The notes under the pieces: model-generated | Told to the model about the DNA's origin: nothing | The model's input: the letters and a program-made list of their open reading frames with translations, nothing else | The model's database searches: none | Position numbers and translations under genes: made by a program | Shown: piece by piece, positions 1 to 63,820 of the stretch | How the letters are laid out: every line of letters starts with the position of its first letter | Position numbering within the stretch: position 1 is the first letter of the stretch | NCBI RefSeq assembly: GCF_900129445.1 | Contig: NZ_FQVT01000001.1 | Span: 620,001 to 684,000 of the forward strand | Origin: Salegentibacter echinorum | GTDB lineage: Bacteria > Bacteroidota > Bacteroidia > Flavobacteriales > Flavobacteriaceae | Length of the DNA: 64,000 nucleotides | Direction of reading: 5' to 3'

Positions 1-612
1 GTACAGTCTATTGGGCATTACGATTTAGATTTTAACGAGATCCCGGTAGATTTTAGCGCTGCCAGTGCGCATAAATTCCATGGTCCTAAAGGTGTTGGCT
101 TTGCTTTTATTAGAAAAAATTCTGGATTAAAACCTCTTATTTTTGGTGGAGAGCAGGAGCGCGGCCACAGGGCAGGGACTGAGGGCGTGCATAATATTGT
201 AGGGCTGGAAGAAGCTTTAAAGCTCGTTATGGATAATTTAAAGGAGGAGCAGGAATATATTCAGGGTTTAAAAACTCATTTTATCCAAAAACTGAAGTCG
301 GCAATTCCCGGGGTCAAATTTAATGGCGCTTGTGAAGATCCTAAAAACAGTACTTATACTTTAGTAAATATTTGCCTTCCTGTTTCAGCAGAAAAGGCTT
401 TAATGCTTTTATTTCAGCTAGATCTAAAAGGAATCTCCTGTTCTAAAGGGAGTGCCTGTCAAAGCGGGAGTGACGAAGGTTCTCATGTTTTAAATGCTTT
501 TTTAGCCGAAGAAGACCTGCAAAAACCTTCCTTGCGCTTCTCTTTCTCCCGATTTAATACCAAAGAAGAATTAGATTATGTGATTGATTGTTTAAAGGAG
601 TATGTTGGATGA
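1..612 (+). CDS. Cysteine desulfurase (NifS/IscS type), C-terminal part, 5' end outside window
   Basis: The reading frame is open from base 1 to the TGA at 610-612 (203 codons), so the N-terminal half lies upstream of the window. Visible residue 25 is the lysine of SAHKFHGPKG, the usual PLP Schiff-base site of class V aminotransferase-fold cysteine desulfurases. The catalytic cysteine lies in CSKGSACQSG (visible residue 153). Family role: transfers sulfur from cysteine to Fe-S assembly or tRNA thiolation. Nothing visible tells whether this paralogue is the housekeeping one. An in-frame GTG at 187 is internal and not a start. An 8-bp tandem repeat begins at the stop codon. Confidence 0.93.
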   Translation, partial: VQSIGHYDLDFNEIPVDFSAASAHKFHGPKGVGFAFIRKNSGLKPLIFGGEQERGHRAGTEGVHNIVGLEEALKLVMDNLKEEQEYIQGLKTHFIQKLKSAIPGVKFNGACEDPKNSTYTLVNICLPVSAEKALMLLFQLDLKGISCSKGSACQSGSDEGSHVLNAFLAEEDLQKPSLRFSFSRFNTKEELDYVIDCLKEYVG

Positions 613-674
613 TGTGGTGATTTGCTGATTTGCTGATGTGTTAATGTAATGATGTGCTGATTCGTTAATTCGAG
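611..674 (+). repeat. Degenerate 8-bp tandem repeat abutting the stop codon
   Basis: Eight consecutive 8-bp units start at 611 inside the TGA stop: GATGTGGT, GATTTGCT, GATTTGCT, GATGTGTT, AATGTAAT, GATGTGCT, GATTCGTT, AATTCGAG. The consensus is about RATNTGNT. The same family occurs on the other strand at 63733-63820, again directly behind a stop codon. Function unknown. Confidence 0.8.
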
Positions 675-754
675 TTTTAAGGTAAATAACAATATAGTTA
701 GTAGTCGCAGTTTGAAGTAGGCAAAACGAGCAACACTAAATTTGTGACAATAAC

Positions 755-787
755 AGATTGCCGCGCTCCTGCGTCGCTCGCAATGAC
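755..787. repeat. Dispersed repeat ending in CGCTCGCAATGAC
   Basis: The block ends in a GCGTCGCTCGCAATGAC core preceded by a GC-rich CCGCGCTCC segment, unlike the AT-rich surroundings. I recognise the reverse form (GTCATTGCGAGCGACG) as a widespread intergenic repeat in many bacterial genomes. The rest of 613-1097 holds no convincing gene, only short repeats and a hairpin. Confidence 0.5.
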
Positions 788-888: not shown

Positions 889-930
889 CTCCCATTTTTT
901 CTATGGGAGGTGGGTTTTCTGCTTTTTTAG
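889..930 (+). terminator. Possible hairpin terminator
   Basis: CTCCCAT (889-895) pairs with ATGGGAG (903-909) around a 7-nt loop, followed by two T-rich tracts (GTGGGTTTT and GCTTTTTT). It would serve the upstream plus-strand gene 280 bp away. The stem is short, so this is a weak call. Confidence 0.35.
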
Positions 931-1053: not shown

Positions 1054-1088
1054 GCCTAACCGATAACCCGCAACTCATAACTCATAAC
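1054..1088 (-). repeat. Degenerate 7-bp tandem repeat behind the M23 gene
   Basis: Read on the minus strand (the strand of the M23 gene, whose stop is at 1098-1100), five 7-bp units follow each other: GTTATGA, GTTATGA, GTTGCGG, GTTATCG, GTTAGGC. The array begins 9 bp past the stop codon. Confidence 0.7.
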
Positions 1089-1097
1089 TGAAAAATC

Positions 1098-5346: not shown

Positions 5347-5398
5347 TAATTGCAATAGAGGGACGTAGCTTAGAGTTTAAAAAATATTACTCTTGTTA

Positions 5399-5427
5399 TT
5401 GTAAATTGAGAAGTTTTCTTATATTTG
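5399..5427 (+). promoter_or_regulatory. Promoter of tRNA-Pro
   Basis: TTG at 5399-5401 and TATATTTG at 5420-5427 with an 18-bp gap match the Bacteroidota vegetative consensus. The tRNA begins 60 bp downstream. Confidence 0.55.
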
Positions 5428-5487
5428 CAGCCGCTTAGCAGTAGTATAAAGCTTTATTGAAGTCTTTAATAATTGCGCAAGCAGTTT

Positions 5488-5562
5488 CGGGGTGTAGCGT
5501 AGCCCGGTTATCGCGCCTGCTTTGGGAGCAGGAGGCCGCAGGTTCGAATCCTGCCACCCCGA
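5488..5562 (+). tRNA. tRNA-Pro (anticodon TGG)
   Basis: The acceptor arm CGGGGTG pairs with CACCCCG (5555-5561) with A5562 as discriminator. The anticodon arm CCTGC/GCAGG encloses TTTGGGA, giving TGG. The T arm GCAGG/CCTGC encloses TTCGAAT. The last 12 bases (from 5551) form the start of a 110-bp direct repeat, so the 3' end of this gene is the attachment site of the island that follows. Confidence 0.96.
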
Positions 5563-5660
5563 CTTTAACAAGTTATATTTTAACATAATTAAAGGGTAAT
5601 TATATGGTTTTCATATAGTTACCCTTTCTTTTTGCACTCAAAATTTAACAAATAGTGTTA
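5551..5660. repeat. attL: left direct repeat of the island
   Basis: The first 12 bases are the tRNA-Pro 3' end (CTGCCACCCCGA). The remainder matches 17746-17854 apart from a C/T change plus one lost T near 5628 and an A/G change near 5642. It includes the terminator hairpin of the tRNA. Confidence 0.85.
5591..5633 (+). terminator. tRNA-Pro terminator, carried within the att repeat
   Basis: A 16-bp stem (5591-5606 with 5612-5627; AAAGGGTAA...TTACCCTTT) closes a GTTTT loop and is followed by CTTTTT. The same hairpin is repeated at 17786-17822, so integration leaves the tRNA properly terminated. Confidence 0.75.
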
Positions 5661-5668
5661 AATTTAAT

Positions 5669-5716
5669 GTGAGTTCACCGTGAGTTCACTGTGAATTTGT
5701 GAGTTTATCGTGAGCT
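5669..5716 (+). promoter_or_regulatory. Putative integrase arm-type binding sites, left arm
   Basis: Repeated units GTGAGTTCACC (5669), GTGAGTTCACT (5680), GTGAATTT (5691), GTGAGTTTATC (5699) and GTGAGCTAT (5710) are mostly 11 bp apart, about one helical turn. Two matching units occur at the opposite end (17666, 17677). Phased arm sites flanking the core are expected for lambda-type and IntDOT-type recombinases. Confidence 0.6.
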
Positions 5717-5811
5717 ATTTTTTTGTATTTTTAGCTTACCGATACGCCATTATTATGTATTGGTAGTTTGACTTTCGCCTTAATTAATTGTTTCATTTAA
5801 ACAACAAAGCT

Positions 5812-17180: not shown

Positions 17181-17207
17181 GATTAAGTAGTTTGGGTTAA
17201 TAAATAT

Positions 17208-17223
17208 TAATTTCCGGAAATTA
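17208..17223. promoter_or_regulatory. 16-bp palindrome upstream of the HExxH lipoprotein operon
   Basis: TAATTTCCGGAAATTA is a perfect inverted repeat 28 bp before the start codon at 17180. It is a candidate operator. No regulator gene is visible nearby. The rest of 17224-17660 shows AT-rich non-coding DNA with two TTTTTACCG copies (about 17275 and 17297) and no gene. Confidence 0.35.
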
Positions 17224-17665
17224 CAAAATAAATGTTAATACATTACAAAAATTGTTAAATTTTAAAAAAAAACATTTTTACCGTAAAAATTGTCGCTTTT
17301 ACCGCAGGATCGTTGGGATTTAATAAATTTTGAAAATATTGATTCAAAAGTTTAAAGTTTTGGATATAAGACTTTAAAATAAAACTTACTTACGGGAAGA
17401 ATAAAAAACGTAACGCCACCCTTTACCAGCAAAGCTGTATTCTTCCCCTCCTTTCTCCAAATATGAGAGCCTCGTTTAAAGTCGTAAGTTAAATTTGGAT
17501 AAAGTTAGCAGCGCGAATCAGCTTGTTGTCTAAACCTGAAAATTTCCTTTTTGTTAAATCATATTTTGCAATAACGTAGCGTAGGAAATTGTTCTAATTG
17601 GACTATAATTTATATCTTTATGCTGTACAGAATATCAAACTGCACCAATACGTTCTATTTAAATT

Positions 17666-17687
17666 GTGAGTTAATCGTGAGTTCAAA
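17666..17687 (+). promoter_or_regulatory. Putative integrase arm-type binding sites, right arm
   Basis: GTGAGTTAATC (17666) and GTGAGTTCAAA (17677) are adjacent and 11 bp apart, and match the left-arm units at 5669-5716. They lie about 60 bp inside the right att repeat. Confidence 0.55.
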
Positions 17688-17745
17688 AAAATGGAGTTGT
17701 GTGAAACCATATAAATACTGGGGGTTTCAGCGTTTTAAATGCGTT

Positions 17746-17854
17746 CTGCCACCCCGACTTTAACAAGTTATATTTTAACATAATTAAAGGGTAATTATAT
17801 GGTTTTCATATAGTTACCCTTTTTTTTGCACTCAAAGTTTAACAAATAGTGTTA
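17746..17854. repeat. attR: right direct repeat of the island
   Basis: It repeats 5551-5660, starting with the 12-bp tRNA-Pro 3' end and including the terminator hairpin (17786-17822). No tRNA body precedes it, so it is the partial copy left by integration. Confidence 0.85.
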
Positions 17855-17858
17855 GATT

Positions 17859-18349
17859 GGATCAAGAACATTTTTGGATCAAGCCTAAATGTTGTGTTTA
17901 AGCAAAAATTGTAGTTAATCTATATAGGAAGAATTCTGCATTTTTGACTCCCCCGATCTGAGCCCTAAAAACTTTTATTTTTGCATTGAAAGATTCTGCT
18001 GATGCGTTTGTACTTCTATTTATAAAGTAATTGAGAATGGATCTGTAGTTAATTGTTATGGTGTTGGCGATGGTGTTAAACGCCTTAAACCCTGTATCTT
18101 CCACATCTTTGTGCCAATGGGCGAGTTTTGTATAAGTCACTTCTTTTGATTTTGCTTTGTTGAATATATCTCTAAGCCTTTGCGTAAGGTTGAAGGCTAG
18201 CTTAATATCTGGATATTGCTCGAAGAATATTTTGCTTCGCTGGTATTGATTCTCTGTCCAATTAGAAGGGGTTTTATAGAGCAGGTAGCGGCTACGAGCT
18301 AGTAATGTTTTTTGGTATCTCTATTGGAAAAGATTTCTAGACTTGATCC
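17859..18349. mobile_element. IS remnant bounded by GGATCAAG inverted ends
   Basis: GGATCAAG (17859-17866; a second copy at 17876-17883) faces CTTGATCC (18342-18349) about 490 bp away, and the interval contains only the C-terminal third of a transposase. It starts 5 bp after attR. The inverted match is only 8 bp, so the ends are tentative. Confidence 0.5.
17898..18320 (-). pseudogene. ISL3-like transposase, C-terminal fragment
   Basis: The frame runs from a TAG at 18321-18323 to the stop at 17898, about 140 codons, with no start in its first 60 codons. The N-terminal DDE part is gone. Segments YQKTLLARSRYLLYK and STNASAESFNAKIKVFR are typical of the C terminus of ISL3/IS1165-group transposases in Bacteroidota. 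A GTG/ATG-initiated 80-residue piece is not likely to be functional. Its location next to the island's right end fits an integration hotspot. Confidence 0.8.
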
Positions 18350-18371
18350 GCAACGCTTCCGTTTTTCTAAA

Positions 18372-18405
18372 AATAAAAAAACCACGCTTAAAAAAAGCGT
18401 GGTTT
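18372..18405 (-). terminator. Terminator of tRNA-Arg
   Basis: AAACCACGCTT (18379-18389) pairs with AAGCGTGGTTT (18395-18405). On the minus strand it is followed by a run of Ts (plus-strand As at 18372-18381). Confidence 0.8.
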
Positions 18406-18416
18406 CCTAACTGTCG

Positions 18417-18490
<74 letters not shown>

Positions 18491-18503
18491 GTTTTTGCGG
18501 TTG

Positions 18504-18533
18504 CAAATATAAACCTCTTTTGAAATAAAACAA
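18504..18533 (-). promoter_or_regulatory. Promoter of tRNA-Arg
   Basis: On the minus strand TTG (18531-18533) is followed after 19 bp by TATATTTG (18504-18511), a full match to the Bacteroidota promoter, 14 bp before the tRNA. Confidence 0.75.
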
Positions 18534-18770
18534 TCTTTTTTTTATCTAAAAAAAAATATTTTTTAAATTTTATTGATTTTCAGTAATTTACATTTTTAAC
18601 ATATTTGGAATTTTAAAAGATATTCTCAATTATATCCTTAATTTTGTGCCGCGAAATTTTAATACATTGCACGTAAAAAATTTAAGCTGCCTCCATTTGT
18701 ACACATGAATTATAAATAGCAAAGTCAACTTAAAAAAACTAAGGCAATTTACTACAGGATCTAACTGTTT

Positions 18771-63292: not shown

Positions 63293-63638
63293 TATCTTTG
63301 TCTTAAGCAGGCCGCCTTATCGCTGCTAATGCAAATTAGTAGAGGAAAGTCCGGACACCAAAGGGCGACATAGTGGGTAACGCCCACCGTTTCCCGTTCC
63401 GACAATTAAGGGGATGGGATTAGGACCAGTGCAACAGAAAGAATGTACAGGTAATGCTGTAGTGAAATCAGGTAAACTCTATGTGGTGCAATGTCACGTA
63501 AACCGGTGCCTGCAAACTGCCCGTTTGCTACCGGAGGGTAGGCAGCTAAAGGTTTTTGGTAACAAAAACTTCAGATAAATGATAGGGGCTTTCTAAGAAA
63601 TTAGAAAGAACAGAATCCGGCTTACAGGCCTGCTTTTT
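63293..63638 (+). ncRNA. rnpB: RNase P RNA (catalytic subunit), with its promoter
   Basis: The mature RNA is about 63306-63638. The conserved GAGGAAAGTCCGGAC (about 63341) and ACAGAATCCGGCTTACAGGCC (split here as ACAGAATCCGGC and TTACAGGCC) are the universal CR I and CR V elements. The ends AAGCAGGCC and GGCCTGCTT pair, followed by TTTTATTTTTTATT as terminator. TATCTTTG at 63293-63300 is the -7 box. It processes tRNA 5' ends. Confidence 0.95.
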
Positions 63639-63732
63639 ATTTTTTATTCTAGAATCGAGAATCGACCTGAAACTTGGGCGTTCCAAGGCTTGGGTAACCA
63701 GGTATTTTGCTTTCGGAAATCTTTAACGCATA

Positions 63733-63820
63733 GATTAATCTATAAATTGAAAAATCTTCAAATTACCTCATTTTTCAATTACCACATCAACATATCACCT
63801 CATCAGCAAATCAACATAAG
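63733..63820 (-). repeat. Degenerate 8-bp tandem repeat abutting a stop codon
   Basis: On the minus strand, immediately after the stop codon at 63823-63825, units follow in register: CTTATGTT, GATTTGCT, GATGAGGT, GATATGTT, GATGTGGT, AATTGAAA, AATGAGGT, AATTTGAA, GATTTTTC, AATTTATA, GATTAATC. It is the same family and relation to the gene as at 611-674. Confidence 0.8.

What the first reader, a model, noticed from the sequence alone, without database searches (positions are those of the whole stretch)
611..674. 8-bp degenerate tandem repeat starting inside a stop codon
Eight in-register 8-bp units (consensus about RATNTGNT) begin at the stop codon of the cysteine desulfurase gene and run on the coding strand. 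The units differ in sequence but keep strict period, which simple slippage does not usually preserve. A second array of the same family occurs at the other end of the window in the same relation to another gene. I know of no named element with this form.
Basis: seen in the sequence. Interest (0 to 1): 0.7.

Follow-up and report, generated by a model that had tools for sequence, protein, structure and literature searches.

The report
Outward-pointing repeat arrays at gene ends
Short, worn 8-base repeats sit right at the edges of genes in scattered Bacteroidota genomes and mostly point away from the gene, a layout already reported for quite different repeats in other bacteria, which hints at one unexplained process acting at gene ends.

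Summary
The array is real: eight in-register units TRATKTGN at 610-673, the first T-R-A being the stop codon. I call the family F1. I counted 30 F1 arrays in the stretches fetched from this genome; 14 of 14 congeners have no match. F1 is scattered through Bacteroidota.

The TRATKTGN strand runs outward from the abutting gene, at stop codons and also just upstream of start codons. In named loci 43 of 57 lie within 8 bp of the stop (9.8 expected). Divergent gaps are avoided (2 of 72). Other 7/8-bp arrays near gene edges also carry more G than C outward. Orthologous gaps show gains with the stop codon kept.

A terminator role is not supported for this array, and codons do not explain the degenerate unit. 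GGGAATC-type heptamers of Xanthomonas and Nostoc follow the same placement rule in print (PMC4692102), so this is a new variant of a known, unexplained kind. My best mechanism is inferred: in-register repeat synthesis on outward-facing 3' ends at gene edges, then slippage.

The parts
610..673 (+). F1 array, eight units TRATKTGN
610..612 (+). TGA stop codon of the Aminotran_5 gene, also the first triplet of unit 1
63742..63813 (-). second F1 array, nine more degenerate units, starting 12 bp after the first base of a minus-strand gene's stop (63825-63823)
   Evidence: frames printed
747..787 (.). palindromic REP-like element in the same gap; many matches of 82-97% identity elsewhere in this genome. 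Likeness to CGTC-tagged REPs is by eye
   Evidence: query 148-188; PMC3733652 passages
1055..1094 (-). 7-bp array at the other edge of the gap (AACTCAT on the plus strand), 3 bp from the M23 peptidase gene's stop
889..914 (+). terminator-like stem-loop, 277 bp downstream of the stop; a consensus match only

Best explanation
The array belongs to a class of short-period (7-8 bp) degenerate direct-repeat arrays that accumulate at gene edges in tandem and convergent gaps, with the G-rich, C-poor strand running 5'->3' away from the gene, at stops and at starts. Shown: position, polarity, in-phase use of the stop codon, avoidance of divergent gaps, patchy presence, and gain with the stop codon kept in orthologous gaps. 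Inferred: units are added to the outward-facing 3' end at the gene edge during break repair or stalled replication, annealing in register to an existing array or to the strand's own repeats (at TAA/TGA stops the T-R-A itself aligns), and then expand and turn over by slippage. On this view the arrays are mostly tolerated by-products, not regulatory parts.
For: 43 of 57 F1 arrays lie within 8 bp of the stop against 9.8 +/- 2.5 expected. The stop codon equals the triplet one period downstream in 29 of 64 arrays against 3.1% at other phases. G>C outward near edges: F1 63:6 at stops and 37:3 at starts, other families 45:4 and 26:8; array-free gaps 322:333 and 508:298. Divergent gaps 2 of 72 against 57 of 240 other gaps. 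G034: 60 bp between the kept TAA and a flank that follows after 7 bp in relatives L295 and L300, with no whole copy elsewhere in its genome. Adjacent units slightly more alike than shuffled (0.828 against 0.810, 134 arrays; higher in 80, lower in 41).
Against: No repair step was seen. The T-R-A register explains F1 at TRA stops only, not start edges, other families or why the G-rich side leads. Other families do not shun TAG stops (14 of 41; 17% of genes). In the congener G009 start-edge arrays go the other way (1:3). F1 arrays 40 bp or more from a stop run 1:7. PMC4692102 reports raised stability around its repeats, not fast turnover. In PMC4679880 the Microcystis sets are of mixed orientation.
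Confidence: 0.4

Rival explanations
1. Selected DNA sites: a DNA-binding protein reads T-R-A-T-K-T-G in tandem and marks gene edges (for example as a boundary for transcription or supercoiling), direction mattering.
For: Positions 2 and 5 are bistable (R, K) while 1, 3, 4, 6, 7 are nearly fixed, equally in arrays on either side of genes; fixed polarity.
Against: 14 of 14 congeners lack the family; gap content turns over within genera; other sequence families follow the same polarity. No binding protein was looked for.
Confidence: 0.2
2. RNA-level 3'-end element: hairpin, terminator or mRNA stabiliser behind stop codons.
For: Stop-edge position; some gaps have two inverted arms; the G034 two-arm insert folds better than shuffles (z -2.11, 8 of 200 shuffles as good) and ends in eight T.
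Against: The window array does not fold (z +1.03). Arms of one gap are no more complementary than arms of different gaps (median p 0.49, 2 of 72 at p<=0.05; the cross pairs share the family, so the test is blunt). 41 of 62 arrays with an outward-pointing gene on the 5' side sit within 40 bp of its start codon.
Confidence: 0.13
3. Translation-level selection: T-R-A supplies stops in all three frames behind genes, and the reverse strand offers no start codons before genes.
For: F1 carries TRA and ATG/GTG/TTG on the outward strand only; TAG stops are under-used beside F1 (4 of 64 against 108 of 632 genes, p 0.013), though a TAG cannot form the unit anyway.
Against: R and K are as strict antisense before starts (282 of 282, 279 of 282) as behind stops (348 of 349, 344 of 349); only position 1 differs (p 0.007), mostly from one locus, L195 (18 of 26 units). 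Other families show the polarity.
Confidence: 0.07
4. Mobile-element product: REP elements with RAYT transposases, or a reverse transcriptase that makes tandem repeats (DRT10-like).
For: Patchy presence. Strong Y1_Tnp genes go with F1 within two genera (p 0.009 and 0.015) and over 52 genomes (p 0.0007; the 60-bit cut-off was chosen after seeing the scores). PMC12632851 (start of abstract in the listing) reports a bacterial reverse transcriptase making tandem-repeat DNA.
Against: In the window's own genus 10 of 13 F1-free congeners have a strong Y1_Tnp gene; with all of them included the table is 18/6 against 15/24, p 0.009. 0 of 20 fetched transposase loci carry an F1 array. G034 has F1 and no Y1_Tnp match. 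RVT_1 has no match in G160, G204, G034 and G043, though a distant reverse transcriptase could escape that model.
Confidence: 0.12

Closest known systems
GGGAATC and GGGGA(C/T)T heptamer repeats of Xanthomonas and Nostoc (PMC4692102; abstract passages, section 10 and other passages seen)
   Same: Degenerate short units; within 50 bp before an ORF on the antisense strand or within 50 bp after a stop on the sense strand, stops overlapped; few between divergent ORFs; inverted pairs in opposite orientation.
   Different: Period 7, G-runs that form quadruplexes in vitro, other phyla. F1 has period 8 and no G-runs. That paper finds raised stability of the loci; here gaps turn over.
TAACTGA direct repeats (PMC4679880; outline and sections 7, 11, 12, 24 read)
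   Same: Intergenic short repeats at gene edges, patchy over species; in the BOGUAY genome 147 of 170 sets point toward a start codon, often ending 1 nt before it; in F. litoralis one set lies directly behind a stop in reverse orientation. The author notes other heptamer repeats in Gramella forsetii gaps.
   Different: Period 7, other unit; mostly at starts; Microcystis sets are of mixed orientation. The author favours translational regulation in BOGUAY.
Cyanobacterial STRR repeats (name recalled; PMC4692102 cites the 1990 paper)
   Same: Degenerate heptamer tandem arrays between genes.
   Different: Other units; edge and phase not examined here.
CGTC-tagged REP palindromes (PMC3733652; passages seen)
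   Same: Intergenic, and one REP-like element lies in the same gap.
   Different: Palindromes, not direct repeats.

Membership tests
Gene-edge G-rich heptamers (PMC4692102) | close to a gene edge with the G-rich strand outward (antisense before ORFs, sense after stops) | tested here: met
Gene-edge G-rich heptamers (PMC4692102) | under-represented between divergent genes | tested here: met
   2 of 72 against 57 of 240
Gene-edge G-rich heptamers (PMC4692102) | 7-bp unit with G-runs able to form quadruplexes | tested here: not met
   8-bp unit, no run of three G in the consensus; so F1 behaves like this class but is not of that family
TAACTGA repeats (PMC4679880) | unit TAACTGA, period 7 | tested here: not met
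REP/RAYT elements | palindromic unit | tested here: not met
   direct repeats; two-arm gaps exist but are not the rule
REP/RAYT elements | copies beside the transposase gene | tested here: not met
   0 of 20 Y1_Tnp loci
Intrinsic terminator | G+C-rich stem-loop followed by T-run at the array | tested here: not met
   none at 610-673, z +1.03; the G034 insert is hairpin-like, z -2.11
Telomerase-like or DRT repeat addition | reverse transcriptase present where F1 is abundant | tested here: not met
   RVT_1 in 0 of 4 (G160, G204, G034, G043); this genome has 2 matches; sensitivity for DRT10 not checked
Known RNA families (Rfam 15) | match at the curated gathering score | tested here: not met
   three matches in 580-1120, all below gathering

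The most novel reading that the evidence does not exclude
A general, so far unrecognised bacterial process adds 7-8 nt, C-poor repeats to outward-facing 3' DNA ends at gene edges: end healing with telomere-like polarity but without a detected reverse transcriptase. It would have left TRATKTGN in Bacteroidota, GGGAATC in Xanthomonas, GGGGAYT in Nostoc and, read outward, TCAGTTA in Beggiatoaceae.
Probability: 0.17. Interest if true: 0.92.

Novelty: new variant of a known kind. Interest (0 to 1): 0.6.

Why it matters
Unrelated short repeats in several phyla share one placement rule: gene edge, G-rich strand outward, tandem or convergent gap. F1 has no G-runs, so quadruplexes, the structure studied for the Xanthomonas and Nostoc repeats, cannot be the general cause; argues against a codon-level one. 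What remains is a DNA-level process or protein that in effect recognises gene edges, and strain comparison or mutation accumulation can test it. It would also bear on how intergenic DNA in Bacteroidota turns over so fast.

Tried and rejected
Terminator or hairpin as the general role: not supported. Codon-level selection as the cause of the R/K degeneracy: not supported. Reverse-transcriptase end addition: no RVT_1 match in four F1-rich genomes. RAYT substrate: no F1 beside 20 transposase genes. The association of strong Y1_Tnp with F1 used a cut-off set after seeing the scores and left out eleven F1-free congeners; with them it weakens to p 0.009, and in the window's own genus it is absent. 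Copying of a whole array between loci: not seen for G034. In this genome F1 stretches of the window gap match other loci only at family level, while the REP-like element has many close copies. Rfam: nothing at threshold. Rearrangement marks: the gene behind cysteine desulfurase differs in this genome from the congeners, but I did not test this genome-wide, and gains between kept genes show that rearrangement is not required.

Dropped before counts, and limits: 10 arrays inside called genes; gaps under 50 bp and periods other than 7 and 8; gaps under 80 or over 700 bp; stop-edge arrays beyond the distance or boundary match (one search used 64 of 69 F1 and 41 of 50 others). Genes come from my own hexamer caller, so single boundaries may be wrong. 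Low pattern counts are not above the reversed control in some genomes (for example G035 0 against 23; G063 0 against 8, G239 1 against 14); the control is zero in G000, G034, G043, G160 and G204. One congener (G007) is 61% complete.

Full report
WHAT IS THERE. The window's first gene ends at 610-612 (TGA), and eight in-register units TRATKTGN run from that same TGA to 673. The lag-8 score (35 of 48) is reached by 0 of 300 Markov-1 sequences of the same length. The gene is Aminotran_5, the next a convergent M23 peptidase. A more degenerate second array at 63742-63813 belongs by motif, not by period alone. I call the family F1.

HOW WIDESPREAD. This genome has 59 forward and 61 reverse matches to three units with up to two mismatches, and none to the reversed control (the list was cut, the counts are whole). 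The loci fetched around listed matches hold 30 merged arrays; 18 of 30 start between 8 bp before and 12 bp after the first base of a same-strand stop codon, eight exactly at it. The second window array is not among the 18, because its gene is cut by the window end; read by hand it starts at 12 bp. With one mismatch allowed, 14 of 14 congeners have no match. In the phylum 36 of 296 genomes have any match, mostly few; G160 has 87, G204 38 and G043 15 matches, and G034 15, all with control zero. Elsewhere low counts are sometimes below the control.

THE POSITION RULE. In those 116 loci I found 153 arrays of four or more units, 10 of them inside called genes. Of the other 143, 70 have a same-strand gene on their 5' side: 26 begin exactly at its stop codon, 48 within 8 bp. 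Of the 57 with both neighbours known 43 lie within 8 bp, against 9.8 +/- 2.5 expected for uniform placement in the same gap. 62 have a gene pointing away on their 5' side, 41 of them within 40 bp of its start codon; for 11 no gene was called there. So the TRATKTGN strand leads outward from a gene edge of either kind. F1 gaps of 80-700 bp are tandem 51, convergent 19, divergent 2; other gaps in the same loci 150, 33, 57 (Fisher p 1.1e-5). The stop codon takes part in the repeat: it equals the triplet one period downstream in 29 of 64 F1 arrays against 3.1% at other phases, and in 6 of 41 arrays of other families against 2.8%. TAG is the stop at 4 of 64 F1 arrays (108 of 632 genes) but at 14 of 41 others.

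NOT ONLY F1. In random samples of three genomes, gaps with a strong 32-bp window at any lag from 5 to 14 have it almost only at 7, 8 and 14: G000 7, 4, 2 of 233 gaps; G009 3, 0, 2 of 175 and one at 10; G160 5, 2, 6 of 176 and two at 11. Simulated gaps give one hit in all, at 13. At a lower threshold arrays of period 10 and 11 also appear. Near gene edges (under 40 bp) 7/8-bp arrays have more G than C on the outward strand: F1 at stops 63:6 and at starts 37:3; other families at stops 45:4 and at starts 26:8; array-free gaps 322:333 at stops and 508:298 at starts. Farther out: F1 at stops 1:7 and at starts 17:4; others at stops 12:9 and at starts 14:9. The congener G009 alone gives 1:3 at starts.

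GAINS SEEN IN ORTHOLOGOUS GAPS. The gap behind one gene was read in 30 loci of G204's genus; the next gene was recognised in 25 of 30. Gap content differs almost completely between species. By eye F1 is present in four (L262, L266, L280, L286), and L267 has a 26-bp perfect inverted repeat beginning at the stop. Others have 7- or 9-bp arrays, REP-like pairs, or no repeat, down to 17 bp in L269 and L271. In G034, 60 bp with two F1 arms lie between the stop TAA and a flank that follows the same TAA after 7 bp in L295 and L300; L293, L294 and L296 also keep the flank without F1. The insert has no whole copy in its genome, only short family-level matches. In G160 the array begins at a TAA that 12 of 15 relatives share (three have TAG); none of the 15 has a long array, and one, L306, has a short worn F1-like stretch. 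At the window's own locus 14 of 14 congeners show no F1 behind the gene; its neighbour there is OsmC in L072, by eye the same gene in nine more, and another gene in the rest.

WHAT IT IS NOT. The window array's RNA folds no better than shuffles (z +1.03; the G034 insert z -2.11), and the terminator-like site in the gap starts 277 bp behind the stop. Arms within a gap are no more complementary than arms of different gaps (median p 0.49, 72 gaps). If codons shaped the unit, R and K should relax where the array lies antisense before a start codon; they do not: R 282 of 282 and K 279 of 282 units there, 348 of 349 and 344 of 349 behind stops (both sets share the same motif ascertainment). Position 1 does relax (p 0.007), 18 of 26 deviating units being from one locus. 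In this genome, found with looser criteria, position 2 is 99% R and position 5 90% K. RVT_1 has no match in G160, G204, G034 and G043. Strong Y1_Tnp genes go with F1 in two genera but not in the window's own, and none of 20 such loci carries F1.

MECHANISM. Shown are position, phase, polarity, gain and turnover. Inferred is that units are laid down on outward-facing 3' ends at gene edges in register with existing repeats and then change by slippage; adjacent units are slightly more alike than shuffled ones (0.828 against 0.810, 134 arrays). At TAA and TGA stops T-R-A gives the register. Why the G-rich side leads at start codons and in other families I cannot explain; that is the open question.

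COMPARED WITH PRINT. Eight searches of the held library did not show this octamer in their listings; papers outside that library were not searched, and none of the searches used the octamer's letters. The same placement rule is stated for G-rich heptamers of Xanthomonas and Nostoc (PMC4692102: passages and section 10), with overlap of stops, few repeats in divergent gaps and 70 and 75 inverted pairs in two species. TAACTGA repeats (PMC4679880: outline and sections 7, 11, 12, 24) mostly point at start codons, with one F. litoralis set in reverse orientation directly behind a stop, which by my reading is the same outward strand; the Microcystis sets do not fit. F1 is therefore a new variant of a known kind. 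It adds period 8, no G-runs, exact phase with the stop codon, and a test against a codon-level cause.

Noticed in passing
window 747-787: REP-like palindrome with many matches of 82-97% identity in this genome, lying between F1 and other short arrays.
   Followed up: partly
window 1055-1094 and 63630-63668: Further 7-bp arrays (AACTCAT; AGAATCG) in the same two gaps as the F1 arrays.
   Followed up: partly
window about 63310-63640: Sequence that looks like an RNase P RNA gene beside the second array; by eye only, not tested.
   Followed up: no
window gaps 5347-5787 and 17181-18770: The two gaps share 114 bp at 97% identity.
   Followed up: no
L045 562491-563829 of contig C28: One gap mixes several F1 arrays with a stretch that runs over into period 7.
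   Followed up: no
this genome's contigs C13, C15, C23, C27, C28: Several F1 arrays lie within about 2.1 kb of a contig end; repeats may have broken the assembly.
   Followed up: no
L207 3101-3148 and L226 16026-16080: Similar 10-bp arrays (GTGGTAAAAT) in two congeneric genomes; resemblance to MraZ boxes is recalled.
   Followed up: no
genome G035: The reversed control pattern has 23 matches, so another octamer family may be abundant there.
   Followed up: no
L290: A long 9-bp array (ATGAATATT) in the same orthologous gap where relatives have F1.
   Followed up: no
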